Assembly: GCF_900465355.1 (NCBI RefSeq)
Contig: NZ_LS483254.1
Coordinates: 372,001 to 436,000 of the forward strand
Source: Candidatus Bipolaricaulis anaerobius
GTDB taxonomy: Bacteria > Bipolaricaulota > Bipolaricaulia > Bipolaricaulales > Bipolaricaulaceae
Length of the DNA: 64,000 bases
Reading direction: 5' to 3'
This document shows, piece after piece, positions 199-34,458 of this stretch. The position numbers and the translations under genes were made by a program. The stretch's first letter is position 1, and every line of letters starts with the position of its first letter. The notes beneath the pieces are model-generated. The model saw only the letters and a list, made by a program, of their open reading frames with translations. It did no database searches and was not told where the DNA came from.

Positions 199-279
199 GC
201 GCCTTGCCCCGGACCACCTGTTCGAGCGCCTAAGCCCCCGCTCCCAAAGGAGTGCGGGATCCAACGTTGCCCCTGCCGC

Positions 280-1410: not shown

Positions 1411-1483
1411 CGGCGACCGCCTCTATTTCCTCAAGGAGGATCTCAAAAGCCTCGTTGACTTCGTTCTCATCCACGGCGCTCAC
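1411..1483 (-). pseudogene. 5' stub of an unknown gene, fused out of frame to hsdR remnant
   Basis: A GTG at 1483, overlapping the last codons of the 965-aa gene as in the other coupled genes here, starts VSAVDENEVNEAFEILLEE and runs about 25 acidic, helix-like codons to about 1411. There the sequence switches to hsdR sequence in another reading frame, and translation would run 18 nonsense codons to a stop at 1352. The stub's coding character and overlap geometry suggest a real third accessory gene stood here before a deletion. Its function cannot be inferred from 25 residues. Confidence 0.5.
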
Positions 1484-4364
1484 CTTCGAGTAGATCCCGG
1501 AACTCCAGAAATCCACGGCTGCCGAGGTAGTGGATGATCCGCTCCGCTTCCTTCCCCGCGGTGGGATTCCGCAATGCCACTGCGAGGATCCTTCGGATAT
1601 GATCGCGGCTTGCGTAGAGCTTCCACCCTTCACGGTCCCCTTCGGCAAGTATCCTCAGGCATTGAGCTGATTCCACAGGATGGCTTTCCACAGTCCTTGC
1701 AAGATGCTCCAGCACCATATGTTCGGGGTCTGTCTGATGGACGAGTTGGAGCGATTCGAAAAGCTGCGCAATGGCCCAGCTCACGTCGAATTTGTCCGAT
1801 ACAAACCACCAGCCAAAGGCTGCCATTTCTTTCTCGAAATCGGAGGGCTGTTGTGCCTTCTTGGCGATGGCAAGACGCAGTTCCCACAACTTCTTGAGCC
1901 GATCCAGGATTTCTGCTGGAATATCCCCTTTCGTTTGCTTCAAAGCCCGCCCTACGAACTCTATGGCGTGACCCCGAAGGCCGTCTGGCGCCTTTTCCCA
2001 AAAGGCCGTAAGCAACGGCTCCCCAAGTGAGAGCTTGCCACGCCAGTAGAACACCATGAGGTGCTCCGCAAGCCTCTCGTCCGGGTTGGCGAGCCACCGG
2101 GTGTCGTCGCGACGGCAACCTATCCGCTCCACTGCATGGCGGTATTGCTCGCGGAGAATGTCCAAAACGTTGTCATAAGGCCTGCAGAATGTTACGTAAG
2201 TGTTCCACGCGGCCTCGAGAAGCGCCTCTTCCCCTTGGCCAATTGGGAAGATTCTCTTTGCATTGTCACGTGCCCACTTGGAATCCAAAAGGACGAGCCA
2301 TGGGAACCACTGGCCGTAGACTGCGCGGATGGCGGGCGATGGCTCTTGCGCCACGTCGAGATGGGCGTCCAGCACTTCCCGGACCTCGGGCATCTCATCG
2401 AAGCCCCTGCGAGGCTGATCCTCGGCGTCTGCTTGACCATCCATGTGCCGCCGCACCCAAAGGGCATAGCGGACGACGGCGTGCATAGCCTCGCCCCGTG
2501 TAGTGTTAATTGAGAGCGTGGCCGGGTCCATGTCGGAGCCGCCGTAACGCTCTTCGTACTCCGGCGTAGGATCGGGGTCGTTAGTCAGTGGTTTCAGAAT
2601 ATGCCACACCTTTTCGCGAAGGTGGATGGGGATACTGCCCGCACCATCGTCAAAGCCGGCGGAGAGTAAGTGCGCGATCGCCTTGCGTGTCCAGCTCCAG
2701 TCGGGATCGGCCTCCATTCGCTTCACCCGCCGGCCCTCGATCTCGCGTGGCTGCGCCAGAACCCATTGGCAGAGATCGAGTACCGACTCCCAATCGAAAG
2801 CCCTGGCCTGCTTAAAGCCTTCCCGGAGGCCGAACAGGACAGCGCGGACGTATGTCGGGTCCAGGCCTTGGAAGCATTTAGCCTCGACTGCGAAAGGTCC
2901 CGGATCTTGCGCGACGACGGACGACAGCACGTGGCCCAGCCCTTCCGGAGAAGGCTCGCAGAAAACGTTGTCCGGAGGCCTCCATGTCTTGAGGAATTCC
3001 ACAATTTCCGCGACGGACATTCCTTTGAGCTCGTCGGCTGACTTGGGGATCGCCGGCCCTACCCATCCGCCTTCCCTGTATATCAAAAACTCCGGATGCT
3101 CTGGCTCGCCGTAGTGCTCGACGAGCGTTCGATAGCGTTCCTGCCAATCCTGGGGCAGATTCTCAGACCCAATCCAGGCCAGCTGGTTCCGTTGCCATAC
3201 CTCGCGGTAGTGGGTAATCTCCTCATCGAATGGTGCAGAACCATTATCGCCTTGCCGCTGTTCCCTGAGCCGCTCTATGTCCGGTCCCGCCTCGATCCAG
3301 CCGAGGATCTTGGTTTGGTCTTTCTCTGTAAGGCGAGAGAAGCTCGCCTGCATCAGCAGGATGTATTCGTGCTGTGTCCCAACGTCATCAAACAGGTTAC
3401 GATTCGTCAGCCGTGTTGCGATAAGCGGTAAGGCCTGATCGGCAAACACCCGGAGAACGTGCAGGGCGATCCGTCGAAACACCTTCCAGGGCCTGCGCTC
3501 GAGGGCGTTAACAACTTCTTCCATATTTGCTTTACGGGAACGCACGGTAAGTTCCGCAACATCCCGGACACCAGAAACAAGGGCGTCCTTGATTGTGTGC
3601 CCGAGGTTCTGTGTATGTTCTTCAATCGCTGGGCGCCGGACGTACGAATAGTCCTCCGGCCCGTGGTCATCTTCCCGAGTCCGCGAAAACCGAATGGTCT
3701 TCTCCAAGAGATCGCATAGCACTTCCAGGGCAGGAAGACCGGCCGTCCTTACCAGTTCCGGATAGTATTTCTTGAGGATCTCCTCGTAATTCCAGGTGTC
3801 GAAGCGCGCCCGCGGCTCCGGCGGGAGCCGGCAGTCCTCTTTCGACGCGGCCTCCATGCGGCGTTCGCCCGGAAGGACATCCAGCAGCACGCTGGCCACA
3901 CGCAACGCCTCCTCAGTCCGGCCACCTTTCGCCCAATGCTCGATGAGCTGCCCGAGTTTCTCCGGCAGCAGCCAATCCGGTCGCTCCGCCCACTGCGCCG
4001 CCTTTTCCACAAGTGGTGCCGACACCTCAGCCGGTATTGCAAGCATCGCGTCCACAAGGTCCCCCAGTACATTGGTGTTTTCGGTATCGTCCATTTCCCG
4101 GATGATTTCGGCTACGCGCTCCGGCTTGTGCTGAGCCATGCGGGCGAGGTACCGCGCCTCGGGCCAAGGGGGAAAACGGATCGTGCCTTCTTCATCGTTT
4201 CGGATCGGCTGAGGTGGATGTCGGAAGAAACCCTTTTGTCGAAGTGGCTCAAGCCACTCCGGGTTTTCGAGGCGGTCAAAGAAATAGCGATACTGTTCGG
4301 CGTACACAAGCAGTGCTAATGCTTGGTCGACCTGCTCAGGAGTTGGTTTGTTCCAAGATTTCAT
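1467..4364 (-). CDS. Large alpha-helical repeat protein, R-M island accessory
   Basis: 965 residues with no signal peptide or membrane span. The sequence is almost entirely amphipathic helices with spacing like HEAT/ARM repeats, for example 90-190 (PERVAEIIREMDD, LVEKAAQWAERP, EEALRVASVLLDVLP) and regions rich in W, R and E. No Walker, nuclease or methylase motif is visible. The start lies 29 bases inside the end of the 228-aa gene, so the two are probably translationally coupled and co-transcribed with hsdRMS. Known defence islands often carry large helical-repeat proteins as sensors or scaffolds; applying that here is inference. Base composition matches the island (lower GC than flanks). 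It could also belong to a different, partly deleted system. Confidence 0.7.
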   Translation of the reverse strand: MKSWNKPTPEQVDQALALLVYAEQYRYFFDRLENPEWLEPLRQKGFFRHPPQPIRNDEEGTIRFPPWPEARYLARMAQHKPERVAEIIREMDDTENTNVLGDLVDAMLAIPAEVSAPLVEKAAQWAERPDWLLPEKLGQLIEHWAKGGRTEEALRVASVLLDVLPGERRMEAASKEDCRLPPEPRARFDTWNYEEILKKYYPELVRTAGLPALEVLCDLLEKTIRFSRTREDDHGPEDYSYVRRPAIEEHTQNLGHTIKDALVSGVRDVAELTVRSRKANMEEVVNALERRPWKVFRRIALHVLRVFADQALPLIATRLTNRNLFDDVGTQHEYILLMQASFSRLTEKDQTKILGWIEAGPDIERLREQRQGDNGSAPFDEEITHYREVWQRNQLAWIGSENLPQDWQERYRTLVEHYGEPEHPEFLIYREGGWVGPAIPKSADELKGMSVAEIVEFLKTWRPPDNVFCEPSPEGLGHVLSSVVAQDPGPFAVEAKCFQGLDPTYVRAVLFGLREGFKQARAFDWESVLDLCQWVLAQPREIEGRRVKRMEADPDWSWTRKAIAHLLSAGFDDGAGSIPIHLREKVWHILKPLTNDPDPTPEYEERYGGSDMDPATLSINTTRGEAMHAVVRYALWVRRHMDGQADAEDQPRRGFDEMPEVREVLDAHLDVAQEPSPAIRAVYGQWFPWLVLLDSKWARDNAKRIFPIGQGEEALLEAAWNTYVTFCRPYDNVLDILREQYRHAVERIGCRRDDTRWLANPDERLAEHLMVFYWRGKLSLGEPLLTAFWEKAPDGLRGHAIEFVGRALKQTKGDIPAEILDRLKKLWELRLAIAKKAQQPSDFEKEMAAFGWWFVSDKFDVSWAIAQLFESLQLVHQTDPEHMVLEHLARTVESHPVESAQCLRILAEGDREGWKLYASRDHIRRILAVALRNPTAGKEAERIIHYLGSRGFLEFRDLLEGERRG

Positions 4365-5022
4365 CTAAAGCCTCCACAGTCTTGAAGAATTCTCTTACCA
4401 TCGCTGACAGTGCCCACTCAAAGCTCTCAAAGCGGTCTTTCAGTTCATCGCCGCCCATCTCGGCATCCTTCTGACCCCGCTCATGTGCACGTTCAACAAA
4501 CCATTCGGTTGTTTTTAACCAATTATCAATTCGCGGCCTAAGGGTTGCCTCCGATACGCAGTTGTTTTGGTCGATTGCCAAAAATAGACGCCTCGCTGCT
4601 TCGCTTCTTGTCTCACGTGCCCGTTCATGATCTCTTACAAGGTTGGCCACTTTTTGGAAGACAGGGTACGGAAGTGGAATATCATCATTGGAAGGTAAGG
4701 CATCCCCTTCGCTTACTCTTGTCGGTGTCGATCCATCAAAAGGAAGGCCATGCCTTTTCCAAAGGTTGCCAATGTCATCAAGGCAGCTCTTGTAGTCGAG
4801 CCGCCATCCAGCTTTAGGCCCTGCTATGATATCCGGCAAGCGGTTTCTTATCTCTCGCACAGCATGCGCAACGAAGCGAACCCGGCCGGGGAAAGCCTCC
4901 GAAAAGATCATACGTAGTGCGCCTTCGTAGAACTCGCCGAGCGACGGAGCGTTGCTCTCGAACCATAAGCGCAAGTCCATGCGCAGTGGAGTCCAAAAGT
5001 CCGGATAGCGAACCTCCATCAC
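4336..5022 (-). CDS. Uncharacterised accessory protein following hsdS
   Basis: 228 residues, soluble, charged, mostly helical. It begins MMEVRYPDFWTPLRMDLRLW and has a conserved-looking segment RVRFVAHAVREIRNRLPD near residues 50-65 and a coiled, acidic C-terminus. I recognise no catalytic motif. Its ATG overlaps the hsdS stop codon as ATGA (5019-5022), and its own end overlaps the next gene by 29 bases, so it is an integral member of this operon. Codon use is the most AT-rich of the island. It may be a small partner of the 965-aa helical protein; a standalone toxin or antitoxin role cannot be excluded. Confidence 0.7.
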   Translation of the reverse strand: MMEVRYPDFWTPLRMDLRLWFESNAPSLGEFYEGALRMIFSEAFPGRVRFVAHAVREIRNRLPDIIAGPKAGWRLDYKSCLDDIGNLWKRHGLPFDGSTPTRVSEGDALPSNDDIPLPYPVFQKVANLVRDHERARETRSEAARRLFLAIDQNNCVSEATLRPRIDNWLKTTEWFVERAHERGQKDAEMGGDELKDRFESFEWALSAMVREFFKTVEALDEILEQTNS

Positions 5023-6134
5023 AACTCCCCCCGAAATGCCCTGTCCAGAATCGCCTGCTCCAGGAGTTGAAATTCCGCGTCGGTGGTCGCCTGGATTTCC
5101 TTCAGGGCCTTGATCTTCTCCTGCACCGCCTCCAGGTGCGCCAAGATCCGCCGCTGCTCATCGAGGGGCGGGAGGGGGATGGGAATTGACCGCATTGCGC
5201 CTTGGGTCAGCTTCGGCCGAGTTGCACCGGTTAGAAATGGGCGCAGGTCATAGGCGACAAGGCAATAGTAGAGCAATTGATTGACCAGATGGTCGGGCCT
5301 GCCACGCAAAATATGCACATGATTGTTAGCCCAGAACCGGCCGCTCATGATGTAGGCGGTAGGTTCGCCGGGCCCATAAAATCCGCCGTCTTCTGCAAGT
5401 AGGACAAATTCACCAGCGTGGGTGTGCCCATCAACGTAGTCTATGACACCATTGGCGCCGCAATAGGGCACATTACCCGGGATGCGAACTTTCTTCTTGA
5501 CTGGCTTTCTTAGCGTGTCCCAAACCTCACACACTTCCCCCAACCGCACCCAGCGCCAGCCGGGAGGCGGTTCGGCACCGGGGCGGGGGAAGGTCTCGGC
5601 AAGGGTGGATTGCCACAGGCGCTCGGCGTCCTCCTTGGCCTGCTGCCGCAGGCGCCGCGCCTCGCGCACCTGCGCCATCAACTCCTCGATCCGCGCCACA
5701 ATGCGGCGTTGTTCGTCGAGAGGTGGGAGGGGGATTATCATTGGAGATAATGTTAAGCGGGTTATTTGCGGTTGAGCGGATCCGCCGATAGCTTCTCTGA
5801 GATCTGTTGATTTAATTACCCAATAGAGGTAATCCTTACGTAAGCCCTCAATTACTGGAGTTACAACCATTGCATTGCCAGTTATCCACGACCGGGGTGA
5901 GGACATGTTGACCGTACCACAGGTAGCACCGCGACAAGTAACAAGAACTTCAGATTCTTCATGATTGAATTGGTAGTAATTACCAATGATTCCATTAGCC
6001 CCAAAGACAGGATACGGTCCTGGGTTACGCTTCATCTCCTGCACTGTAATTGTTTTGGGCTGATACAAATTGCACACCTCCCCCAACCGCACCCACCGCC
6101 AGCCTTCGGGGAGTTTGTAGAGTCCCTCAGTCAT
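5019..6134 (-). CDS. hsdS: Type I R-M specificity subunit HsdS
   Basis: 371 residues in the classic two-half layout. Target-recognition domain 1 starts at LPEGWRWVRLGEVC, is followed by a conserved linker (PLPPLDEQRRIVARIEEL) with a long coiled-coil helix, then target-recognition domain 2 (PPGWRWVRLGEVCEVWDT) and a second linker (PLPPLDEQRRILAHLEAV) with a closing helix. Each half reads one part of a bipartite DNA site and the helices set the spacing. The 5' end overlaps hsdM by 8 bases and the 3' end overlaps the 228-aa gene by 4. The recognition sequence cannot be predicted. Both halves are complete, so this subunit should be functional. Confidence 0.95.
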   Translation of the reverse strand: MTEGLYKLPEGWRWVRLGEVCNLYQPKTITVQEMKRNPGPYPVFGANGIIGNYYQFNHEESEVLVTCRGATCGTVNMSSPRSWITGNAMVVTPVIEGLRKDYLYWVIKSTDLREAIGGSAQPQITRLTLSPMIIPLPPLDEQRRIVARIEELMAQVREARRLRQQAKEDAERLWQSTLAETFPRPGAEPPPGWRWVRLGEVCEVWDTLRKPVKKKVRIPGNVPYCGANGVIDYVDGHTHAGEFVLLAEDGGFYGPGEPTAYIMSGRFWANNHVHILRGRPDHLVNQLLYYCLVAYDLRPFLTGATRPKLTQGAMRSIPIPLPPLDEQRRILAHLEAVQEKIKALKEIQATTDAEFQLLEQAILDRAFRGEL

Positions 6135-7635
6135 GGGGAGCCACCTCCCCGTTGTTGTTGCCGAGGAGTTCGCTTAGCTCCTCCACGATACTCAGGATCT
6201 CCCGCTCGCGCTCAAGGAGGCCCGCCACGATCTCCACCGGCGAGGGAAGCGCCTCGGCCTCCTTGCGGTTCGGGTTGCGGGCGGTGAGGTCGTAGCCGCG
6301 CCCTTTGACCTCATCGGCAGGAACGATCCAGGAACGCTCGGAAAGGCTGGCCTCAAACGGGCCCTGGCCTTTGCGATAAGCATCCCATGCTTTCCAAAGT
6401 CGGCGGGCCTCTTCAAAGTGCTCGTCCTGGATGGGGCTTCCCTTGCTAAACTTTTTCAAGCCCCCCGGCAGAGGCAGTTCGTAATACCATATCTCCGTAG
6501 TCGGTCCGGGTCGCTCGAAGAAGAGGAGCGCTGTCTTGACATCAGAATAGGGCGCAAAGGTGCCGGGCGGGAGGCTCACCACGGTATGCAGATTGAACTG
6601 CTCCAGGAGGTCACGCTTGACGTCGGCAAAGGACCCGCCGCGAAATAGCGTCCCTTCGGGCACGACCATCCCGCAGCGGGCGCCGTCCCGGGGCTTGAGC
6701 CTCTTCATGATGTGCTGGACGAATAGGAGCTCGGTAGCTGTGGCCTGCACTGGAAAGTTGGCCTGGATGTGCCGGCCTTCTGTGCCCCCGAATGGGGGAT
6801 TGGTGAGCACCACATCGTAGCGCTCGGTGACGTTGCGGATATTCTCCTCGAGGGTATTGCGCCGCATCACGCGGGGGGCGGTCACGCCGTGAAGCACCAT
6901 GTTCATGAGGCCCAGGAGGGCCGGCAAAGGCTTCTTCTCCTGGCCAAAGAAGGTTTTTTCCTGCAGGGTCTTGTGGTCTTCCAGGGTACGCTCGGATTTT
7001 ATCATGAAGAGGTAGGCCTGAGCCAGGAAACCACAGGTGCCACAGGCAGGATCATAAACGGTCTCGCCGATCTTGGGGGCGACGAGCTCCACCATAAAGC
7101 GCACCACCGGTCTCGGCGTGTAGAACTCGCCGGCCAGCCGGTTCTCGCTGCCCAGATGGCGTAGGAGCTCTTCGTACACCTGGGAGACGGTGAAAATGTC
7201 GTCCTGACTATGGAAGTCGATGCCATTGATGATGGTCAAGACATCCTTGAGGTTGTAACCCGAGGCGCAAACAATAACGTTGCGCTCGGCGAACACGCTG
7301 CGGATCGTCTCGCGCAGGGGATCGCCTCCCAGACTCTGAAGGTAGGGAATCAACCGGCCTTGGACGAACTCCAGCAAGCGATCAGCGGGCCAGTCCTTCG
7401 TAGCCCATGCGCTCCAGCGCAGGTCGCCATCCAGAATGCGGGTGTAGGGGCGGCCGGCAAGCTTTGCTTGAGTCTCCCACTCCTCTTCCTGGGCGTCCAA
7501 GAACCGCAGGAAGAGCAGCCAGGCCAGATGCTCGATGTATTCCATGACGCCACCGCAGTTGTTGTCGCGGCGCAAGATGTCGCAGGCCCGCCAGATTTCG
7601 TTGGCAAGGGATTCCCGAGTTTGAGGCCCGTTCAT
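6127..7635 (-). CDS. hsdM: Type I R-M DNA adenine methyltransferase HsdM
   Basis: 502 residues, normal length. The N-terminal HsdM_N helical domain covers about 1-150. The N6-adenine methylase core has SAM motif I DPACGTCGFL and catalytic motif IV NPPF at residues 279-282. It would methylate the site chosen by HsdS and form M2S, or R2M2S with HsdR. Motif I has Cys where the second Gly of GTGGF is more usual; the rest of the core is intact. Start ATG overlaps the hsdR stop (ATGA, 7632-7635). It differs from the broken chimeric hsdM upstream and is the likely working M subunit of this locus. Confidence 0.93.
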   Translation of the reverse strand: MNGPQTRESLANEIWRACDILRRDNNCGGVMEYIEHLAWLLFLRFLDAQEEEWETQAKLAGRPYTRILDGDLRWSAWATKDWPADRLLEFVQGRLIPYLQSLGGDPLRETIRSVFAERNVIVCASGYNLKDVLTIINGIDFHSQDDIFTVSQVYEELLRHLGSENRLAGEFYTPRPVVRFMVELVAPKIGETVYDPACGTCGFLAQAYLFMIKSERTLEDHKTLQEKTFFGQEKKPLPALLGLMNMVLHGVTAPRVMRRNTLEENIRNVTERYDVVLTNPPFGGTEGRHIQANFPVQATATELLFVQHIMKRLKPRDGARCGMVVPEGTLFRGGSFADVKRDLLEQFNLHTVVSLPPGTFAPYSDVKTALLFFERPGPTTEIWYYELPLPGGLKKFSKGSPIQDEHFEEARRLWKAWDAYRKGQGPFEASLSERSWIVPADEVKGRGYDLTARNPNRKEAEALPSPVEIVAGLLEREREILSIVEELSELLGNNNGEVAPHD

Positions 7636-10291
7636 GCTGTTACCTCCTCAGCGTAGATTCGTTTTTGCATTTCCTTCAGAGACTGACCGAGTAACTCTGC
7701 ACCGCCGAACCACCCGCTGATCCTGGCGGCACCGCCCCACTCTCGGAAGGGTGAGACCCCGAAAATCTCCGGCTCAAGCTGCTCGATGCCGCCAATGCGG
7801 TATTTGTCGAGGAGCTCCAGGATGACCTTGCGAGCATCTTCCTTGTGAGCGGCAATGAAGGCTTGCTCACGGTTTCGGAACCCGGCGGCCCGCTCGCTGC
7901 GGGTGCGGATAGGGCTGCCGAAGGCGATATGGCAGAGAAGGTCGAAGGCGTCTGCTTCGGGCTGGCCAAGGACTTCGGCGAGCACCTCAGGATGGATGCT
8001 GGAACGGCGCAGCTCTTCCAGGAAAGCGCGGCGGCGCGTGCTATCCACCCAGATGTCTCGCAGGGCTGTGCGGCTGTCGGCAGACCGCAGAATGCGGTGT
8101 TTGGTGTAGTCGCGGTATTGCTCGAGCGTGAGCTGCTCGCCTGTGGACTCGATCAGGAATATCGCTTCATCGGCAATGCTCACCTCGAGACCTTCCACCC
8201 GAATCCTTCCGCCCTTTTTCCTCGCCGGCTTGAGGCCAACAGCTTCCTGAATCGTCTGGTCTGTCAATGTTTCCACGACGATGGTGCGGCTCACAAAGCC
8301 CTTGGCGCTCACCATGAGCTGGAGGTTGCCAGCGGGAAGGCGGTCAAAACTGAAACGGCCATTTTCATCGGTCTGGATCGGGCCTCGCTGGCTGTTGGGC
8401 CCGGTTCGGACGCTAACTCGTGCGCCGACAATCAGGTCGTTTGTGTCGGCATGAAATACGACCCCCTCTAAGACGGCAGTCTGTGGGCCATTAGGCGGCT
8501 CCGGCGGCGGCAGTGGAGGACGATCCCATTCATCAAAGAGGCGGGTCGCGCCCGTGTAGTCGATAATACGGAACCAGTACTTGTCAGTGGCGGAATCCAG
8601 GCGACTGCCGCGTCCGATGATTTGCTTGAACAGAATGGGCGAAGACAGCGTCTTCATGAACACGATATTGCGGCACGAAGGGACATCGACACCCGTCGAG
8701 AGAAGTTCCGCCGTCGTCGCCACAACCGGGGCATGTTTGTCCGAGTCGGCGAAGGCCTCCAGCCAACGGCGACCTTCTTCGCCTTCCTCAGAGATGATGG
8801 GGACGGCGTAGTTGTCGAGCCCGGTCTCGGGTCCGAATTCGTCCTGGAGCAGGCGGGTGACCAGCCGCGCATGTTCCATGTCCACGCAGAAGACCATGGT
8901 TTTTTCCCTCGCACCGAAGCGGCGCAGGAGCCCTGCCAGATGGCGCACCATCTCCCGGGTCCGGTCCGGAAGGGTGATCTCTCTTTCGAATTGGGGCGTG
9001 GTGTAGACCTCGCGCGGCTCCACCTCTTCGGGGATAAAGACCTCCGCTCCCTGTTCTACAGCCTCCTGCAGATGCAACCCAGTCGCGTCAACAGTCGTTC
9101 GCACGCGATGCACCTTGTAAGTGGCCAGGAAGCCGTCCTCGATACCTTGCCCCAAGCTGTATTGATACGCTGGTGGCCTCCAGGTGCCCCGGCCCGGGTC
9201 GTCTGCGTCAATGGCAACCCCGGGTTCTTCGGCGCAGAAGTAAGCGTAGGTGTCCACATTTTCGTCCTGTTTGGGCGTGGCAGTCATGCCGAGTTGCATG
9301 GCAGTGCCGAAGTGATCGAGGATCTCCCGCCAGGTCCCAAAACCCGAACGGTGGCACTCGTCGATAATCACGAGGTCAAAGAAGTCTCGCGGAAATTTCT
9401 CGAAGAGGCGTTTACCCACCTCATCCGGGCCCCACAGCGTCTGATAGATCCCGAAGTAGAGGTCCCGCGTCAAGTTGGCCGGATGCCCTTCGATCTTGAA
9501 GCGAGGCTCGCTCGTTCCGTCGGCGAACGGTGCGAAGGTATTGTATGCCTGGTTGCGCAGCACGACGCGATCTGCCAGGAAGAGAACGCGCCCGGGGCGG
9601 TCGGGATGCCGGCGCTGGAGCCAACCCGATTTAACGAGCTTCCAAACGATCTGGAAGGCGACGAAGGTCTTGCCGGTTCCGGTGGCCATCGTCAGGAGGA
9701 CGTGCTTCTGGCCGCGCACAAGGCGCTTGATGACTTCGCGGATGGCCACTTCCTGGAAGTAAAACGGCGTTTTCCCGCATAGGCTTTCCGGGCAGTATGG
9801 ATGAAGGAGCGGATTGCTCCGCTTGCCTACGCCGTATTCCTCTGGGCGCTCGGCGACGCGCGACGCATCTGGGCTTCCCTGATTCTGTTGCCATCTCTCC
9901 CACAGCTCACGGGGACTCGGGAATCGGTCAAGAACCTGGGTTGACTTTGTAAAGAAGTCGAATTCGATGATCTGGTGACCATTCGCAGCGTAGGCGAACG
10001 CGAGCCCGAGCTCCCTGACATAGCGTTTGGCTTGTTCAAGCCCAGCCTCGGCCGCTTCCGCCTCGGACTTCGCTTCGACAACGGCGATGGGAAAAGAATC
10101 AGAAAGACGCAAAAGATAGTCCACCTTGCGGGCCTCGCCCCTGCGAACCCGATCGCCCACCAGGATGACGCGCCCCTGCGTGTACCGCTGGTCCCGCTGG
10201 TAGTAGTGCTCCCTTGTGATTTGCGTGTCAGCCCAGCCTGCGGCTTTCAGTTTCGGGTCGATGAGCGTCGCCCGCGTGTCCGCCTCGTTTC

Positions 10292-10295
<4 letters not shown>
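7632..10295 (-). CDS. hsdR: Type I restriction subunit HsdR with inserted Ig-like domain
   Basis: 887 residues. The N-terminal HSDR_N nuclease has D59, E74 and K76 in the PD-(D/E)xK pattern (KVDYLL..VVEAK). The SF2 translocase has Walker A MATGTGKT (203-210) and motif II DECH (VIIDECHRSGFG), and the second RecA domain ends at IIGRGSRLDS. After a proline-rich linker, residues about 605-690 form a beta-rich module (AVLEGVVFHADTNDLIVGA, DENGRFSFDRLPAG) that looks like a carboxypeptidase-regulatory or Cna-B-like fold. Then the C-terminal EcoEI-type helical domain resumes. It should cleave unmodified DNA with HsdM and HsdS. It overlaps both neighbours by 4 bases. The inserted module is unusual for an intracellular nuclease. 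Confidence 0.93.
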
Positions 10296-12372
<2,077 letters not shown>

Positions 12373-24180: not shown

Positions 24181-27100
24181 GTGACCGATAGCGACGTGTG
24201 GACGATGGAACTGGCGAAGGTGGATCGGGCGGTGGAGGCCCTCATCCAGGCGGAGGAGGAGCGCCAATGCCGCAAGATCATCCTCATCCCGTCGGAATCC
24301 CTGACCCCCCGTGCTGTGCGCGAGGCGATGGGGAGCGTGTTCACTTCGATCTACGCTGAAGGGTACCCGCGCGAGGAGATGCTCCGCCTTCCGGAGGACC
24401 GGCTGATGGAGATCGCGGAACAGCTCGCGTACTTTCGCCGCTACAGCGATCGCCGGTTCTACAAGGGGGTCGAGTTCGCCGACCTCGTGGAGGCCCTCGC
24501 CTGTCGCCGCGCCGCGGAGTGCTTCGCCACCCCCGACGTCAGGGCTGACGACATCTTCGTCAACGTTCAGGCGCTATCGGGCGCGGCAGCGAACATGGCG
24601 ATCTACGATGCCCTCCTCCGGCCGGGGGACACGCTGATGGCGATGGACCTCTCCCAAGGGGGCCACCTCTCCCACGGGTCGCCGTTCCACCAGTCCGGCC
24701 GACGGTACCGGATGGTGCGCTACGGCGTGGATCCGCGGACGGAACGCCTCGACTATGCCCAGATCTCCGACCTCGCCCGGCAGCACCGCCCCCGGATGAT
24801 CATCGCCGGGTACACGTCGTATCCGTGGGCCCCGGACTGGAAGGCGCTGCGAGAGATCGCCGCCGGCTGCGGGGCGTTCCTCATGGCGGACATCGCCCAC
24901 ACCGCGGGGATGGCGATCGCTGGGGCCTACCCCAGCCCGGTGGGGTACGCCGACGTGGTCATGTTCACCACCCACAAGACCCTGTGCGGCCCGCGGGGGG
25001 CGATCGTCCTCTCCTTCGATCCCGAGATCGCGGCCCGGATCGACGCGGCGGTGTTCCCCGGGGCCCAAGGGGGCCCCCACGTGAACAAGTGGGCTGGCAT
25101 CGCCGCCGCGCTCGCGTTGGCCAAGACGCCGGCGTTCCGCGACCTCCAGCACCGGACGGTCGCCAACGCCGCCTCCCTCGCGACTGCGCTCCGGGAGCGG
25201 GGCCTGCGCCTCGCCTACGGCGGCACCGACACCCACCTCCTCGTCCTCGACCTCCGGGCGATCCGCCCCCCCCGTGGGGGAGAGCTGATGGGGGAGATCG
25301 CAGCTCGGATCCTCGATCTCGCCGGCCTGGTGGTGAACAAGAACACGATCCCCGGGGACGCCTCGGCCGCTGACGCCCGTGGGCTCCGGTACGGGACTCC
25401 GTGGGCCACCCAGCGGGGGATGGGGAAGGAGGAGATGGAGGAGATCGCGGACATCTCCCGCCTCGTCCTGACCTCGATCTACCCGTTCACGTACCAGGGC
25501 GTGACCGGCCCCCTCCCTCGCGGGAAGCTCCCCCTCGCGGTGCTCACCGAAGCTAAGGAGCGCGTGGAGGCGCTCGCTTCGCGGTTCAGCGGGCGCGCTT
25601 TCCGGTCCCCCAGCGGGCGACGGCCCGCGGCAAGCGGCGTCGCGGCGCTGCGGGTACGGGGCGGCCGGGCGGCCCAGCTCCTCCACGAGGCGTGCACCGC
25701 TCACGTCCTCTCCCTCGATCCCGGGCAGGGGTGCCGCACCCTGTTCCTCGATCAGGAGGGGACGATCCTCGCCGCGGCGATCGTGGGGAGGCTGCCCGAC
25801 GACCGCTGGGGCCGGCCGGAGTTCGCCGTCCTCGTCCCGAGCGACCGGGGCCCCGTTGTGGCGCAGTGGCTCACGGCCCTCGCCGATGGCTACGTCCTGT
25901 TCGATCCCGACGACCTCTACCGCAAGGTGCAGGGCCCGGCGGTCGTGGAGCCCGATGCGGGAGGTGCCTCGTTCCGCCTCGCCGACGGGGCGGTTGTGTC
26001 GGCCGAGATGGACCTCTTCGCGGGCGCCCCCCGGTCGGGGGATGCGTTGGAAAGCCGCCCTGACCTCGTCTCCCCGCGCAAGCCCTACTTCATCGGGTGC
26101 CAGCGGATCCGCCTGGCGGGGGGCAAGGAGCCCTACGCGCCGCACGCTCCCAGCGCTGGCATCGCCCGCACTCCGCTCTCCGACTGGCACCGCGACGCCG
26201 GGGCGCGGATGGCCGAGTTCGCCGGGTTCACGATGCCGCTCTGGTACACGTCGGCCCTCGCGGAGCACCGGGCGGTGCGGGAGGCGGCGGGGCTGTTCGA
26301 CCTTGGGCACATGGGGGCGTTCTCCGTCGCGGGCCGCTACGCGGAGAGCTTCCTCAACCTCGTGACCACGAACTACGCGGGGTGGCTCCAGCCGGGACAG
26401 TCCCAGTACGCCTTCCTCCTCACCCCCGACGGGGCGGTGGTGGACGACCTCATGGTGTACCGTCGGTCCCGCGACCACTTCCTGCTTGTGGTCAACGCCG
26501 CGAATGCGAGCAAGGATTGGGACTGGCTCTCGGCGATCAACTCCGGGAAGGTCCTCCTCGACCCTGACCGGCCGTGGGTCGAGCCGGATGGACCGGTGAC
26601 CCTCCGCGACCTCCGTGGGGACAACCCCGACGCGCTCGTGGACATCGCCCTCCAGGGGCCGTGGTCCCGGGCCCTCCTCGAACGGCTCCTTACGGGGCCG
26701 GACCGGCACCGACTCACCTCCCTCCGGCGTGCGGAGTTCTGCGAGCTCAGCGTGGATGGGGTTCCTGTCCTCTGCGCCCGCACCGGGTACACGGGCGAGC
26801 CCCTGGGGTACGAGATCCTCGTCTCCCCCGCGCAGACGATGCGCCTGTGGACGACGCTCCTTGCGGCGGACAAGGAGCGCAACCTGCAGCCGATCGGGCT
26901 CGCCGCGCGGGACTCCCTCCGAACGGAGGCGGGCCTCCCCCTCTACGGCCACGAGCTGGCCGGATCCCACGAGATCCTCCCCCATGAGGCGGGGTTCGCG
27001 CCCTACGTGAAGCTCCACAAGCCGGCGTTCGTCGGTCGGTCTGCCTACCTCCGCGCCGTCGCGGGTTGGACGCGGGAGGTGGTGCGGTTCTCCATTCCCG

Positions 27101-27384
27101 CCGGTCAGCGGCCGGTGCGGGCGGGGACCCCGGTCGTGGACAAGGGGGGGCAGGTGGTGGGGTGGGTCACGAGCTGTGTCGTGCTGGAAACGGGCCAGGT
27201 GGGGATGGCCCTCCTCTCCGTGCGCGGGCTGGGGGAGGGGACGCCGCTGGGGTTCGTCCTCGGCGCCGAGCGAGGCCTTCCCGAGAAGATCGAGCCGGGG
27301 GCGCGGCTCCCCCTCCCGGTGTGGGGCGCGGTGCTCCCCCGGTTCCTCAAGCGGGACGCCCTCCCCATGGCGGGGGAGGACTAG
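24181..27384 (+). CDS. Fused serine hydroxymethyltransferase - aminomethyltransferase
   Basis: 1067 residues from GTG 24181. Residues 1 to about 455 are a PLP-dependent SHMT; the Schiff-base lysine is K266 in TTHKTLCGPRG. Residues about 475-655 form a linker domain resembling a reduced GcvT/YgfZ N-domain (ALRVRGGRAAQLLHEACTA, DGYVLFDPDDLYRKV). Residues about 660-1067 are a complete GcvT with TPLSDWHRDAGARMAEFAG, DDLMVYRRS and ARTGYTGEPLGYEI. SHMT interconverts serine and glycine with methylene-THF; GcvT makes methylene-THF from the aminomethyl lipoyl-H protein. The fusion joins the two THF steps. No gcvP or gcvH is in the window. The stop shares CTAG with the convergent protease gene. Confidence 0.93.
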   Translation: MTDSDVWTMELAKVDRAVEALIQAEEERQCRKIILIPSESLTPRAVREAMGSVFTSIYAEGYPREEMLRLPEDRLMEIAEQLAYFRRYSDRRFYKGVEFADLVEALACRRAAECFATPDVRADDIFVNVQALSGAAANMAIYDALLRPGDTLMAMDLSQGGHLSHGSPFHQSGRRYRMVRYGVDPRTERLDYAQISDLARQHRPRMIIAGYTSYPWAPDWKALREIAAGCGAFLMADIAHTAGMAIAGAYPSPVGYADVVMFTTHKTLCGPRGAIVLSFDPEIAARIDAAVFPGAQGGPHVNKWAGIAAALALAKTPAFRDLQHRTVANAASLATALRERGLRLAYGGTDTHLLVLDLRAIRPPRGGELMGEIAARILDLAGLVVNKNTIPGDASAADARGLRYGTPWATQRGMGKEEMEEIADISRLVLTSIYPFTYQGVTGPLPRGKLPLAVLTEAKERVEALASRFSGRAFRSPSGRRPAASGVAALRVRGGRAAQLLHEACTAHVLSLDPGQGCRTLFLDQEGTILAAAIVGRLPDDRWGRPEFAVLVPSDRGPVVAQWLTALADGYVLFDPDDLYRKVQGPAVVEPDAGGASFRLADGAVVSAEMDLFAGAPRSGDALESRPDLVSPRKPYFIGCQRIRLAGGKEPYAPHAPSAGIARTPLSDWHRDAGARMAEFAGFTMPLWYTSALAEHRAVREAAGLFDLGHMGAFSVAGRYAESFLNLVTTNYAGWLQPGQSQYAFLLTPDGAVVDDLMVYRRSRDHFLLVVNAANASKDWDWLSAINSGKVLLDPDRPWVEPDGPVTLRDLRGDNPDALVDIALQGPWSRALLERLLTGPDRHRLTSLRRAEFCELSVDGVPVLCARTGYTGEPLGYEILVSPAQTMRLWTTLLAADKERNLQPIGLAARDSLRTEAGLPLYGHELAGSHEILPHEAGFAPYVKLHKPAFVGRSAYLRAVAGWTREVVRFSIPAGQRPVRAGTPVVDKGGQVVGWVTSCVVLETGQVGMALLSVRGLGEGTPLGFVLGAERGLPEKIEPGARLPLPVWGAVLPRFLKRDALPMAGED

Positions 27385-29811: not shown

Positions 29812-30864
29812 ATGAAGCGCGTTGCCATTCTGCTCTCCTTCTTCACCTGGGCGGCCGGGGCGGTGCCCGTCGTCCCCCTCGCCACGACCCCCGACGATCC
29901 GCAATACGTCCGCTTCGTCACCGATCTCGTCGCGGGCGCGCGGGAGGAGGTCCTGGCTTCCCTGTCCGACATCCGCCGCTACACCGGGGATGGGGCAACG
30001 GAAGGCCTCCTGGTGGCCCTCGCCGACGCTGCCGCCCGCGGCGTGCGGGTGCGGGTCCTTGCGGAGCGGCGGGAGACGGATCCTCTGTTCGAACAGAGGG
30101 GAGCCGCCGAGTACCTGGCGGAGCGGGGGGTAGGGGTGCGGTGGGACGCGCCGGAGGTGACCCTTCACACGAAGTTCCTCGTTGTGGATCGGCGGTGGGT
30201 GGTGGTGGGCTCGACCCACTGGACGATGTCCGCCCTCACGCGGAGCGTTCAGCTCGACCTCGCGCTCGAATCTCCGGAGCTGGGGGCCGCGTTCGGGGAG
30301 TTCTTCGACCTCCTCTGGGAGGGGCAGCTTAAGGCGATCCCCGCGCACCCCCCGCCCCCGTGGCCGGAGCCGGCGGTGGTCCCCCTCCTCGACCCTCCTC
30401 AGGGCGGGCTCCATGCCCGATACCTCCCGGACCTGATCCGCCGGGCCGAGCGTTCCGTGCGGCTCATCCTCTACCGACTGGGGTACTACCCGACCTATTC
30501 CGATAGCCCCTCGAACCGCATCGTGGAGGAGCTCTGTGCCGCTGCGGCCCGGGGGGTCGTGGTGCAGGTCCTTCTGGAGGGGGGGGAGGATTTCGCGGAT
30601 CTAGCCCACGACAATCGGGTGGCGGCGGCGTACCTCACTGCCTGCGGGGTCGCGGTGCGGTTCGATGCGCCGGGGACGACCCTCCACGCCAAGGGGTTGA
30701 TCGTGGACGGGCGGGACGTCCTCGTCACCTCGGCCAACGGTTCCTACTCCTCGCTTGTCCACAACGTCGAGGCGGGGATCCTCCTCCTTTCCGCGCCCGA
30801 GGTCGGCCGGCCCCTTGCCCACTGGTTCGACGTGCTGTGGGACGAGGCCCGACCCCTGCCCTAG
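29812..30864 (+). CDS. Secreted phospholipase-D-like protein (two HKD motifs)
   Basis: 350 residues. An N-terminal signal peptide (MKRVAILLSFFTWAAGAVP) directs export. Two PLD half-domains follow; motif 1 is H119-x-K121-x4-D126 with GSTHWT and motif 2 is H292-x-K294-x4-D299 with TSANGSYSS. The two HKD motifs form one active site that cleaves phosphodiester bonds through a phosphohistidine. Substrate may be lipid or nucleic acid; not decidable here. Its stop shares CTAG with the convergent PKD gene. Confidence 0.88.
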   Translation: MKRVAILLSFFTWAAGAVPVVPLATTPDDPQYVRFVTDLVAGAREEVLASLSDIRRYTGDGATEGLLVALADAAARGVRVRVLAERRETDPLFEQRGAAEYLAERGVGVRWDAPEVTLHTKFLVVDRRWVVVGSTHWTMSALTRSVQLDLALESPELGAAFGEFFDLLWEGQLKAIPAHPPPPWPEPAVVPLLDPPQGGLHARYLPDLIRRAERSVRLILYRLGYYPTYSDSPSNRIVEELCAAAARGVVVQVLLEGGEDFADLAHDNRVAAAYLTACGVAVRFDAPGTTLHAKGLIVDGRDVLVTSANGSYSSLVHNVEAGILLLSAPEVGRPLAHWFDVLWDEARPLP

Positions 30865-31514
30865 AAGGTGAGGGGGCCCGCCACCGGGACGCTCACGCGT
30901 TCCTTGTGGTCCCCAACGGTGACGATGCCTGTGACCGAGCACGCCAGGCGGGCCCGCGCCCTGGCCGACGGAGGGTAGAGGACATACTGGAGGACCAGCT
31001 CCTGGCCGGGATAGAGGACGGTGGCGGAGGCGGCGAGGATCTCGAGCTGCCCTTGCTCGTTCATCCGCGCCGGATCGAGCGACGTCGCTGTCCAGCCCGG
31101 CGGAACGTCCACCGTGAGGCCTGGGCCGAAGATCTCCGTTCGGGCCCGGATCACAACCGTCACCTCGGCCACATCCCCTGTCCAGCGGACCTCCCCCACG
31201 GCCCCCAGCCGGGAGTCGGCGACCACCACCACGCCGAGCTGGGAGATGGATCGGCTGCCTTGGATGACGTCCACCATGACGTTCCATGCCCCGGCGGGCA
31301 CGGTCCAGTTCGCCCACGGCTGGTTCGTGGTCGCATCGGGGCGCCCATCGCCGTTGAAGTCCCATTTGAACTGGGCGCCAGCGGGGGCCCCGCTCACCTG
31401 GAAGCTCACCTCGCTCCCCGGCTCGGGGATCGCGGTGGATGGGATCAGGGCGAGGCCCTGACCAAACGAGAGGACCCCGATCATCAAGCATGCGGTCACC
31501 ATGACCGTTCGCAT
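30861..31514 (-). CDS. Secreted PKD-like domain protein
   Basis: 217 residues from ATG 31514, preceded by AAGGAGG. Signal peptide at 1-20 (MRTVMVTACLMIGVLSFGQG). Residues about 25-110 look like a PKD/Ig-like domain, with the hallmark KWDFNGDGRPD. Residues about 115-215 form a second beta domain (VTVVIRARTEIFGPGL, LYPGQELVLQYVLYPP) similar in style to modules in the next gene. Probably a cell-surface or extracellular binding protein. It lies 79 bases downstream of the 736-aa gene on the same strand. Confidence 0.7.
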   Translation of the reverse strand: MRTVMVTACLMIGVLSFGQGLALIPSTAIPEPGSEVSFQVSGAPAGAQFKWDFNGDGRPDATTNQPWANWTVPAGAWNVMVDVIQGSRSISQLGVVVVADSRLGAVGEVRWTGDVAEVTVVIRARTEIFGPGLTVDVPPGWTATSLDPARMNEQGQLEILAASATVLYPGQELVLQYVLYPPSARARARLACSVTGIVTVGDHKERVSVPVAGPLTF

Positions 31515-31593: not shown

Positions 31594-33804
31594 CTAGCGG
31601 TCGCAGACCCCCGGCGCCCGGCCGGGAAGCACCTCGCAGATCGGGGTGCCCGTGAGCCAGAGGGCAATGATCGTCTTCATCGTCTCGTAGTCCACGATCC
31701 CTGGGGCACACGTCCGCGGAACCTTCGTCCCTTCGAGCCAGAACGCGATCGCCCGTTGCACCTGCGGGAACGTGATCTTGTCCGAAAGCGAGAGATCGAT
31801 CGTATCCCGAACCACATCCCAGCGGGAGATGGCCACGATCACGTTCAGGCAGTCGGTGAGGTCGACCCGGCTCGCGCCCGTGACCTCGACCTCGAGGCAG
31901 GGGTGACCGCTGTCGGCGCGGCCGACGACCGTTTCCGACGACAGCACCTTACAGGGATCCGGCGGAGTGGTTTCCACCGTCACCGTGGGTGGGACCTCGA
32001 CCTGGTAGATGATCGTCTTCGTCTGCCCGGCCTTGAGGGTCCCGGTGAATGCCCACTGGTCCACGCCCGGCTTGTAGGTGAAGCCGTCGTTCTGGATCGG
32101 GGTCACCCGCCACCCGATGGGGAGGTCCTCGTCGAGGCCCACGCCGTACACGTCCCGGTCCGTCGTGATCTCCACCTTGACCGTGAACCTGTTGCCGACG
32201 ACATTGCCCGCCGAGTCGTAGAACCCGATGACAACGCCCTCGCACGGGATGGGGGTGATGATCCACCGTTGGGCCTGGAGGTTCGCGGGGGCCATCGTGG
32301 GGAGCGGCTGGTCAATCGCCGTACAGGATAGCGAGTACGCGGCGATGAGCTTCAGCATGTGCAGGCTGATCCGTTCGCCACAGGCCTTCACCACCGGCCG
32401 ATCGGTCCGCCACAGCTCCGTGGCGCGGGCGAGTTGGTCGGCTGTGATCGCTTCCGACAGCCGGAGGTCCACCCGATCCTCTTCCCCTGGCATCGCGGCC
32501 GGGACGAGGTGGGCTACCGCTTCGAGGACGGAGAGGCAGTCGTTGACAAGGAAGCACGACTCGCCGGCGACCTCGAACTCGAAGTCGGGGACCTTGGCCT
32601 GGAAGATGCCGGTGATGCAGAACTGCTGCGGGAGGCGGATCGAGGCGAGCAGTTCGACCTCCGGCACGGTCACATCGTAGATGATGACCCGCTCAGTGCC
32701 CGCCTTGATCGGCTCCAAGAACACCCACTGCACCTCGGCCCGTTTGAAGATCGCGCCGCCGTTGGCGACCGGCGTGATCTCCCAACCCACCGGTGGGTTC
32801 TCGTCCAGCCCCGCCCCCGCCAGGTCCTGATCCGTGTGGATCCGTACCTGAACCCGAAACGCGTACCCCGGAAGGGCGGTGGTGGTGGAGATCGAGCGGA
32901 CCGCGGTCACGGTGACGAGCGATACGAACACCGGCATCGAGTAGGTTGTCTCCATCCCCGTGTTGTCCACGAGCGTCAAACGGATGGTGTACGAGCCACC
33001 GGTGAGGTAGGCGTACTTCACGGTCGGTTCCGTGCTCTCCAGGTCCACCACGCCGTCGCCGTTGAAGTCCCAGCGGTAGCGGACGATGGACCCATCGGGA
33101 TCCACGCTCCCCGAGGCGTCGAATGTCACCTGCTGGCGCGCCCGCGGAGCGGCCGGGCTGAGGACGAGGTTGGCCACCGGCGGCTGGTTTGTCATCCCCT
33201 GGATCACGATCGGCTCAGTCGTGTTGAGCTCAAGCCGCGTCGGGGCGTTGATGTTGCCGGACTTGACCACGATCCTCTGCACCCCGGAGAACGCGCCGGG
33301 GGTGAGGGTGATCCTGAACTCCTCTCCGAGCGGGCCGAACACGCCCCCATCCGTGCTGTTCGCCCCCCACGTCCACAGGATTTGGTACTCGCCGTTCGCG
33401 AGGACGTACTCATCGTTGAGCTCGGGCAGGAAGATCGCGAACAGGGGGAACCCCTCGTCATCCTTGACCACGAAGTCCGCCCCGATGGGGAGATCCGTCA
33501 GCGTGAGCCGCACGTTCCCGCCCGCGCCGGTGTCGGCCTTGTTCACGATGAAGAAGAGGTACAGGTCCTGCGTCGTTGGCTCCCGGTACAGGAACAAAAC
33601 CAGGTTTCCCGTCTCCGCGAGCTCGTTTCCGCTGCGGGACAGCCCACCATCGTAGGCATAGAACTCAGCGGCCGCCTTCGCCCCCCCCAGCGGGGGGATC
33701 GCGGCCTTGACCGCTCCCTGGGTCACCTGGAAGTAGCCCTGCGCGCTCAAGGGCACGGCGACCATCAGGGAGACCAAGAACCATAGGCTGGTCTTCCTCA
33801 CCAT
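31594..33804 (-). CDS. Large secreted PKD protein with duplicated dockerin-like modules
   Basis: 736 residues from ATG 33804 (AAGGAGG 11 bases upstream). Signal peptide at 1-23, a beta domain to about 210, then a PKD domain (YRWDFNGDGVVDLESTEPTV). Two tandem modules of about 200 residues follow. Each has a beta domain (GAGLDENPPVGWEITPVANG and GVGLDEDLPIGWRVTPIQND), then a paired-helix segment. In the second copy this reads ITFPQVQRAIAFWLEGT and VDYETMKTIIALWLTGT, recalling the two helices of a dockerin but without its Ca2+-binding Asp loops. Several cysteines are paired within modules. It is likely an extracellular adhesin or scaffold part. Ligand unknown. Confidence 0.7.
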   Translation of the reverse strand: MVRKTSLWFLVSLMVAVPLSAQGYFQVTQGAVKAAIPPLGGAKAAAEFYAYDGGLSRSGNELAETGNLVLFLYREPTTQDLYLFFIVNKADTGAGGNVRLTLTDLPIGADFVVKDDEGFPLFAIFLPELNDEYVLANGEYQILWTWGANSTDGGVFGPLGEEFRITLTPGAFSGVQRIVVKSGNINAPTRLELNTTEPIVIQGMTNQPPVANLVLSPAAPRARQQVTFDASGSVDPDGSIVRYRWDFNGDGVVDLESTEPTVKYAYLTGGSYTIRLTLVDNTGMETTYSMPVFVSLVTVTAVRSISTTTALPGYAFRVQVRIHTDQDLAGAGLDENPPVGWEITPVANGGAIFKRAEVQWVFLEPIKAGTERVIIYDVTVPEVELLASIRLPQQFCITGIFQAKVPDFEFEVAGESCFLVNDCLSVLEAVAHLVPAAMPGEEDRVDLRLSEAITADQLARATELWRTDRPVVKACGERISLHMLKLIAAYSLSCTAIDQPLPTMAPANLQAQRWIITPIPCEGVVIGFYDSAGNVVGNRFTVKVEITTDRDVYGVGLDEDLPIGWRVTPIQNDGFTYKPGVDQWAFTGTLKAGQTKTIIYQVEVPPTVTVETTPPDPCKVLSSETVVGRADSGHPCLEVEVTGASRVDLTDCLNVIVAISRWDVVRDTIDLSLSDKITFPQVQRAIAFWLEGTKVPRTCAPGIVDYETMKTIIALWLTGTPICEVLPGRAPGVCDR

Positions 33805-34014
33805 CGTCAACCTCCTTACCTTGTGCACCACAGCCAGTCTAGCGGCAAACTCTGTTCGTGTCTGTAACTGGGATCACCCCCCGGCGTCATCGGTGCATCA
33901 GAGGGACAGGCTACCCCGGGCGCGGGACGGACTGCGGGAAAGAGGAGGATCCTCCGCCCCCGGTTTGTCACGGGGCGAGGGGACCTGGATCACCTGGCTT
34001 CCGGTCAGAGAAGG

Positions 34015-34458
34015 TTACAGGGAGAAGGCAGATGGAGTCTGGGCCGCGTGCGGGTGGTCGGGCCCCGGGTAGATCTTCAGCTTGCGCAGCATCCTCCGCC
34101 CGAGCTCGTTCTTGGGGAGCATCCTCCGTACCGCAACCCGGATCGGGATCTCGGGGTGCTGGCGCTGGAGTTCGCGGTACGGCGTGGCCGTGAGGTGGCC
34201 GATGTACCCCGAATGGCGGTAGTACATCTTCTGATCCCACTTCTTTCCCGTGAGGCGGACCTTATCGGCGTTGATCACGATCACGTAGTCGCCCACGTCG
34301 AAGAACGGCGTGTACGTCGGTTTGTGCTTGCCCTGAAGGATCGTCGCTACCTTGGAGGCGAGCCGTCCGAGCGGCTGGTCCGTGGCATCCACCACGAGCC
34401 AGTCGCGCCGGAAGGTCACCCCGGCATCGCCCTTCTTGGCCATGTACGTCTTCTGCAT
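34015..34458 (-). CDS. rplM: Ribosomal protein uL13
   Basis: 147 residues. Signatures WLVVDATDQPLGRLASKVA, GDYVIVINADKVRLTGKK and VRRMLPKNELGRRMLRKLKIY. uL13 is an early assembly protein of the 50S subunit. AGGAGG precedes the ATG and a promoter lies just upstream. In most bacteria rpsI follows directly; here the downstream 210 bases hold no gene and then the unrelated PKD gene starts. Confidence 0.97.
   Translation of the reverse strand: MQKTYMAKKGDAGVTFRRDWLVVDATDQPLGRLASKVATILQGKHKPTYTPFFDVGDYVIVINADKVRLTGKKWDQKMYYRHSGYIGHLTATPYRELQRQHPEIPIRVAVRRMLPKNELGRRMLRKLKIYPGPDHPHAAQTPSAFSL

What the first reader, a model, noticed from the sequence alone, without database searches (positions are those of the whole stretch)
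31594..33804. Duplicated secreted module with degenerate dockerin-like helix pairs
The 736-aa protein repeats a unit of about 200 residues (GAGLDENPPVGWEITPVANG; GVGLDEDLPIGWRVTPIQND), each closed by two helices with an AIxxWL-type core (IAFWLEGT, IALWLTGT). These look like dockerin helices stripped of their Ca2+ loops. The neighbouring 217-aa protein has a related beta domain. They may form a surface complex specific to this lineage.
Basis: partly seen in the sequence, partly recalled or inferred. Interest (0 to 1): 0.5.

Follow-up and report, generated by a model that had tools for sequence, protein, structure and literature searches.

The report
Phylum-signature envelope protein with doubled module
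This gene makes an exported chain of immunoglobulin-like domains in which a unit ending in a small, apparently new helical domain is repeated twice; nearly every sampled genome of this poorly known bacterial phylum has it, conserved nearly as well as household enzymes, so it is probably a basic part of the cell envelope and not a dockerin.

Summary
The 736-aa exported protein (A, window 31594-33804, minus strand) carries two homologous ~200-residue modules, far beyond chance (0 of 1000 shuffles). Each is a beta-sandwich plus a helical domain (H). The 217-aa neighbour (B) shares the PKD-beta part.

The dockerin reading is not supported. H has no dockerin hit in Pfam and none in PDB sequences, aligns with the phylum's own dockerins no better than column-shuffled profiles do, lacks the Ca2+ ligand pattern and has no significant fold match. 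No cohesin was found in this genus.

The beta-sandwich has a CnaA-like fold (CLIPPER/DUF11), but its isopeptide Lys and Asp sites are Arg and Glu in 66-67 of 67 orthologues.

A is a phylum signature: present in 96 of 100 class genomes, H in none of 289 others, co-inherited with ileS and lon in a recurring ileS-purA-rplM-A-(M)-B-lon neighbourhood. M, a VWA-bearing paralogue, is missing at this locus in this family.

Best explanation: a soluble exported envelope scaffold or coat protein whose beta-H modules, above all the last H, form the assembly interface. Location and function are inferred. New variant of a known kind with a probably new helical domain.

The parts
31594..33804 (-). gene A: exported 736-aa protein with two beta-H modules
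   Evidence: ORF; orthologues in 96 of 100 class genomes
33811..33815 (-). GGAGG ribosome-binding site of A
   Evidence: sequence
33739..33804 (-). N-terminal signal peptide, about residues 1-22 (no lipobox Cys)
   Evidence: by eye; residues 1-21 pLDDT < 50; no signal-peptide predictor was run
33190..33735 (-). N-terminal beta domain, residues 24-205
   Evidence: model; profile A6 found in 95 of 100 class genomes and 3 of 278 others
32917..33189 (-). PKD domain, residues 206-296
   Evidence: PF18911 60.8 bits, cut-off 27; 4aqo Z 13.6, rmsd 1.8, 86 aligned
32545..32910 (-). beta domain 1, residues 299-420, CnaA-like (CLIPPER/DUF11-like)
   Evidence: 9ifr Z 12.8, rmsd 2.5, 118 aligned; 4hss Z 11.8; R303/E335
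32293..32544 (-). helical domain H1, residues 421-504
   Evidence: model alone pLDDT 92.0, pTM 0.82
31861..32286 (-). beta domain 2, residues 507-648
   Evidence: homologous to beta 1, E 1.9e-41; R513/E559
31621..31860 (-). helical domain H2, residues 649-728, the most conserved part
30861..31514 (-). gene B: exported 217-aa PKD + beta paralogue without H
34015..34458 (-). rplM, recurring upstream neighbour (context)
   Evidence: synteny; named by eye

Best explanation
A is a soluble, Sec-exported structural protein of the cell envelope of this phylum (Bipolaricaulota/Acetothermia): a chain of a beta domain, a PKD domain and two beta-H modules. The H domains, above all the C-terminal one, are most likely docking surfaces for a conserved partner: other A chains, B, M where present, or a wall or outer-membrane component. 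The chain is stiffened by predicted disulfides and by an Arg-Glu pair where related stalk domains have an isopeptide bond. Shown here: architecture, duplication, phylum-wide presence, vertical inheritance, recurring gene order. Inferred: export (signal peptide by eye), envelope location, self- or partner-assembly, disulfides, Arg-Glu pairing. Not known: the partner, and whether A sits in the periplasm, on the surface or in the prosthecae.
For: Signal peptide; 5 of 65 orthologues have any Cys in residues 11-40 and 1 of 65 a second hydrophobic span over threshold, so no lipid or membrane anchor in most. Ig/PKD string. Present in 96 of 100 class genomes at E <= 1e-35, all but G044, G047, G053, G099; one N-domain match in 89 of the 95 class genomes that have any. 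Identity within the genus 85.0% (9 loci, two with the same A) against ileS 78.4 (8), lon 78.9 (7), purA 73.4 (8), rplM 87.5 (9). Pairwise identities follow ileS (r 0.953, 19 loci), lon (0.957, 17), purA (0.879, 24), rplM (0.843, 50). rplM lies upstream on the same strand in 40 of 56 loci printed, within about 1.1 kb in 39. H2 is the most conserved domain: 94.4% in the genus, 57.5% in other families. Cys pairs 396/417, 423/475, 652/699 and 521/723 occur strictly together (phi 1.00, 67 rows). Omp85 in 88 of 100 class genomes including this one suggests an outer membrane.
Against: No localisation, abundance or binding data. Beyond the genus A is less conserved than the enzymes beside it: family 59.9% against ileS 66.0, lon 66.8, purA 63.5; other families 42.6% against 53.3, 50.1, 48.6. 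Codon bias does not single A out (11th, tied, of 46 window ORFs picked by a G+C heuristic). No known anchor in A. Three of six genomes in family f5 lack A, though they are 71-84% complete. The full model has pTM 0.52 and its five models range from pLDDT 80.6 to 55.8, so domain arrangement is uncertain. Disulfide pairs rest on co-occurrence in related sequences. Six proteins carry H twice and then at least 209-1023 further residues, so H is not simply a C-terminal sorting signal.
Confidence: 0.45

Rival explanations
1. A is part of an adhesive fibre: M, with its VWA domain, would be the binding subunit, A and B the shaft, H domains the joints.
For: M in other families is VWA-PKD(s)-beta-H (PF00092 in 6 of 6 scanned), directly after A; D-x-S-x-S/T in 25 of 25 distinct M, the strict D-x-S-x-S in 10; beta 1 resembles stalk and pilin domains (9ifr, 4hss, 7w6b).
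Against: M is not at the locus in this family while A and B remain, nor is an H-bearing M found elsewhere in this genome; sortase and assembly genes were not sought; PMC6092417 (passages) reports no pili or adhesin genes found in Ran1. That A is too conserved for an adhesin is my inference.
Confidence: 0.2
2. H is a degenerate dockerin that still docks on a cohesin-like beta domain, without Ca2+.
For: Two helices after a 12-residue loop with D at position 1 (64 and 65 of 67) and I at position 8 (63 and 67 of 67); the beta-H order resembles X-module-dockerin (recalled); the top, non-significant fold hit is a type II X-dockerin; true dockerins and cohesins exist in the class.
Against: No profile similarity to 19 phylum dockerins, no dockerin among the Pfam hits of 50 H copies, position 3 R or T/S, position 12 Q in 133 of 134, no cohesin found in any of 12 genus genomes.
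Confidence: 0.06
3. A is a periplasmic helper of envelope biogenesis or a binding protein rather than a structural protein; its N-terminal beta domain binds a glycan or metal.
For: Near-household conservation; invariant D115, D116 and conserved W144, W146 in the N-domain; the N-domain occurs in other exported proteins.
Against: The N-domain is the least conserved folded part (33.4% across families) while H2 is the most conserved. The neighbours recognised (rplM, B, PLD-like, lon) give no hint of transport, but other flanking genes were not examined.
Confidence: 0.2

Closest known systems
CLIPPER (DUF11, PF01345) domains of fibrillar adhesin stalks
   Same: CnaA-like beta-sandwich fold; beta 1 matches 9ifr at Z 12.8, rmsd 2.5 over 118 residues, with the pilin SpaD (4hss) close behind at Z 11.8
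   Different: The Lys site is Arg in 133 of 134 and the Asp site Glu in 132 of 134; A scores 16.7 bits, below the Pfam cut-off 24.6; an H domain follows each copy
Ig-array S-layer proteins (e.g. Deinococcus HPI; PMC10120038, outline and section 7 read)
   Same: exported chains of Ig-like domains, with disulfides (predicted here)
   Different: no lipobox, SLH or TM anchor; more widespread in its phylum than HPI, for which the paper reports about 20 homologues; lattice not shown
Dockerin_1 (PF00404) and X-dockerin dyads
   Same: helix pair after a 12-residue loop, preceded by a beta domain
   Different: no Ca2+ ligand pattern, no profile match, no significant fold match, no cohesin found in the genus
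PKD-domain surface proteins
   Same: one ordinary PKD domain (PF18911, 60.8 bits)
   Different: PKD is only one part of the chain

Membership tests
Dockerin_1 (PF00404) | profile match in Pfam | tested here: not met
   none of the 14 families hit by 50 H copies at E <= 10 is a dockerin (HMMER filters drop most matches above about 0.1)
Dockerin_1 (PF00404) | two Ca2+ loops D-x-N-x-D-G-x-I-x-x-x-D | tested here: not met
   first loop of each H: position 3 (R 62/67; T 28 + S 25/67), 5 (S 50/67, 62/67), 12 (Q 66/67, 67/67); the second loop was judged by eye only
Dockerin_1 (PF00404) | profile-profile similarity to dockerins of the same phylum | tested here: not met
   score 12.2, probability 0.74%; column-shuffled mean 8.9, max 15.2 of 60
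Dockerin_1 (PF00404) | dockerin fold | tested here: inconclusive
   best Foldseek hit 5g5d_B (X-dockerin), E 2.0, prob 0.08; none of 18 chains with Z >= 2
Dockerin_1 (PF00404) | cohesin partner in the genome | tested here: not met
   PF00963: 0 of 12 genus genomes including own at E <= 0.01, though 26 of 100 in the class
CLIPPER/DUF11 (PF01345) | CnaA-like fold | tested here: met
   9ifr Z 12.8, rmsd 2.5, 118 aligned to residues 294-421; beta 2 by homology to beta 1
CLIPPER/DUF11 (PF01345) | Pfam score over cut-off | tested here: not met
   A 16.7 bits; M at most 24.1 (a DUF11 hit in 2 of 6 scanned); cut-off 24.6. A relative, L223, reaches 25.3 for the whole protein, no single stretch passing alone
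CLIPPER/DUF11 (PF01345) | isopeptide Lys and catalytic Asp | tested here: not met
   R 66/67 and 67/67; E 66/67 and 66/67 (sites placed)
CLIPPER/DUF11 (PF01345) | isopeptide Asn | tested here: inconclusive
   the last strand aligns ambiguously
PKD (PF18911) | profile over cut-off | tested here: met
   60.8 bits, cut-off 27
Ig-array S-layer protein | exported chain of Ig-like domains | tested here: met
   signal peptide by eye
Ig-array S-layer protein | known anchor (SLH, lipobox, TM helix) | tested here: not met
   no SLH in A; 5 of 65 orthologues have a Cys in residues 11-40, 1 of 65 a second hydrophobic span
Ig-array S-layer protein | abundant surface lattice | not testable with these tools
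   needs microscopy and proteomics

The most novel reading that the evidence does not exclude
H is a new protein-protein docking domain confined to this phylum, held by an internal disulfide where dockerins use Ca2+. A is the principal structural protein of the Bipolaricaulota envelope, and perhaps of the prosthecae known from one member: a lineage-defining envelope architecture inherited since early in the phylum.
Probability: 0.2. Interest if true: 0.75.

Novelty: new variant of a known kind. Interest (0 to 1): 0.5.

Why it matters
The envelope of this phylum is unresolved: PMC6092417 (passages) finds it hard to call mono- or diderm and reports no adhesin genes in one member. A phylum-wide, vertically inherited exported protein is a concrete handle on it, usable as a marker or antibody target in sludge and hydrothermal samples. 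It would also add a helical module to the domains known to join exported Ig strings.

Tried and rejected
Dockerin kinship: tested by Pfam, PDB sequences, profile-profile, loop residues, fold and cohesin search, and rejected as a membership claim.

H as a purely C-terminal sorting domain: true for A and M (0-22 residues follow; L124, whose frame runs off the contig, has 57), but six proteins continue for at least 209-1023 residues after H.

Very high expression: codon bias ranks A 11th, tied, of 46. The PDB search with the beta-H profile gave no hit. No Rfam family at the locus. Fold search of the whole model gave many Ig strings of no specific meaning; the top VIA row, 2c26 (Z 15.2), has rmsd 11.6 over 179 residues. 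G399 as the replaced isopeptide Asn was my first reading; the joint alignment did not settle it, and in that alignment B and the 337-aa protein do not show the Arg-Glu pair.

Limits: DUF11 comparison sequences were picked with a K..D..N pattern, so their K and D counts are partly by construction. One search's query held the PKD domain; its hits in 27 of 97 genomes outside the class I read as PKD only, without checking each. Identities are best local BLAST pieces covering over 80%. Paper searches whose listings showed no description of A or H; only PMC6092417, PMC12617251 and PMC10120038 were opened. This is not proof that none exists.

Full report
What is there. On the minus strand, 31594-33804 encodes a 736-aa protein with a signal peptide by eye. 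Pfam finds over cut-off only PKD models (206-287, 60.8 bits). AlphaFold2 from 16 sequences gives pLDDT 80.6 and pTM 0.52 for the best of five models (the others 74.1-55.8): an N-terminal beta domain, PKD, then beta-H-beta-H. The two modules (291-506, 507-736) are homologous: score 270 against a shuffle maximum of 64 of 1000; hhalign E 1.1e-66, and separately for the beta parts and the helical parts. The downstream 217-aa protein B is a PKD-beta paralogue.

The helical domain. Folded alone (30 sequences) H is predicted with pLDDT 92.0 and pTM 0.82: one short and two longer helices. Foldseek against the PDB gives four hits, none significant; the first is a type II X-dockerin (E 2.0, probability 0.08), and VIA-align reports none of 18 chains at Z 2 or more. 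The H profile finds nothing in PDB sequences and no dockerin in Pfam. Canonical dockerins occur in 62 of 100 class genomes (56 over cut-off), one of them in this genome, so a fair comparison exists: hhalign of H against 19 of them scores 12.2, and column-shuffled H profiles reach 15.2. The 12-residue stretch before the first long helix keeps Asp at position 1 (64 and 65 of 67) and Ile at 8 (63 and 67), but Ca2+ positions 3, 5 and 12 are R or T/S, S and Q. Cohesins occur in 26 of 100 class genomes (20 over cut-off) but in none of the 12 of this genus. So H is not a member of the dockerins by these tests; a very remote common origin is left open.

The beta domain. Beta 1 matches the crystal structure of a CLIPPER (DUF11) domain, 9ifr, at Z 12.8 and rmsd 2.5 over 118 residues, with the SpaD pilin at Z 11.8; CnaA-like is the safe statement. 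CLIPPER domains can hold a Lys-Asn isopeptide bond with a catalytic Asp (PMC12617251, passages). Aligned to such domains of the same phylum, the Lys site of A is Arg (66 and 67 of 67) and the Asp site Glu (66 and 66 of 67) in both copies; M agrees (R 21 of 25, 4 gaps; E 25 of 25), B and the 337-aa protein do not. An Arg-Glu pair in place of the covalent bond is an inference; the Asn site is not settled. The alignment of beta 1 to DUF11 is weak by itself (7.8% probability), that of beta 2 better (77%).

Predicted disulfides. Cys 396/417, 423/475, 652/699 and 521/723 are present or absent strictly together in 67 orthologues (33, 48, 57 and 50 of 67; phi 1.00), while the 423/475 pair is independent of 521/723 (phi -0.06). 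423/475 and 652/699 are equivalent positions in the two H domains. Shared ancestry inflates such counts.

Distribution. With residues 200-736 as query, 96 of 100 genomes of the class have A (E <= 1e-35); the four without are three of family f5 and a 56%-complete one. H is in the same 96 of 100 and in 0 of 289 genomes outside. The N-domain is in 95 of 100 and in 3 of 278 others, there in exported proteins, several with what looks like a FlgD/T9SS-type tail (my reading). A in 67 orthologues has 24 invariant columns. Pairwise identities follow ileS (r 0.953), lon (0.957), purA (0.879) and rplM (0.843), so A is vertically inherited. Within the genus A (85.0%) is better conserved than ileS, purA and lon; in the rest of the family (59.9%) and across families (42.6%) it is less conserved than they are. 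B is much less conserved (53.9%, 36.8%, 27.7%).

Neighbourhood. The order ileS-purA-(FAH)-rplM-A-(M)-B-(PLD)-lon recurs in whole or part; rplM lies upstream of A in 40 of 56 loci printed, within about 1.1 kb in 39, with three genomes counted twice. Only the window's own neighbours were looked for. M, 633-827 aa, lies directly after A in 25 distinct loci of families other than f1: VWA, PKD, beta and a final H (PF00092 in 6 of 6 scanned); D-x-S-x-S/T in 25 of 25 distinct M. M was not seen at the locus in f1, to which this window belongs, nor in L140, L153, L154, L156 and L169-L171.

Envelope background. Omp85 is found in 88 of 100 class genomes including this one, and an SLH domain, mostly one match in a short frame, in 59 of 100 including this one. 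A has no SLH, lipobox or second membrane span. PMC6092417 (passages) describes bipolar prosthecae, no LPS genes, an envelope hard to class and no adhesin genes in a member of the phylum.

Reading. An exported, anchorless Ig string, conserved nearly as well as household enzymes, single in most genomes (one N-domain match in 89 of 95), with the last helical domain most conserved (94.4% in the genus, 57.5% across families), is best explained as a structural envelope protein whose H domains dock on a conserved partner (0.45). An adhesive fibre with M as the binding subunit (0.2) and a periplasmic helper or binding protein (0.2) are the main rivals; a degenerate dockerin is unlikely (0.06).

Noticed in passing
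G000:C1:4652-5662 (L183, minus strand): A second protein of this genome, 337 aa, has a NEW3 domain (33.8 bits, cut-off 24.4) and then an H-like stretch (E 7e-4, only the first half of the H profile matched; the second helix is by eye); an exported-looking 423-aa ORF lies upstream of it.
   Followed up: partly
L204, L206, L208 (G022, G028, G034): A dockerin protein is followed directly by a protein with a weak cohesin match (below cut-off) and a lipobox-like GC motif by eye: a possible two-gene cohesin-dockerin display pair.
   Followed up: no
L022 (DYGJ01000015.1): A record labelled Thermotoga sp. carries A at 87% identity and the same gene order; probably a mislabelled Bipolaricaulota genome.
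   Followed up: no
window 1-12000: G+C is 0.55-0.62 here against 0.65-0.72 in the rest of the window; possibly a foreign island.
   Followed up: no
window 24181-27384: A 1067-aa frame reads like a fusion of serine hydroxymethyltransferase and glycine cleavage T protein (by eye; not searched).
   Followed up: no
L219-L224: A further family in f2 genomes has beta-H-beta-H at the N-terminus and a long tail; the four members scanned have SprB, PKD and Ig repeats there.
   Followed up: partly
class genomes, PF00395 search: An SLH domain, mostly one match in a frame of about 170-300 aa, occurs in 59 of 100 genomes: a candidate outer-membrane tether.
   Followed up: no
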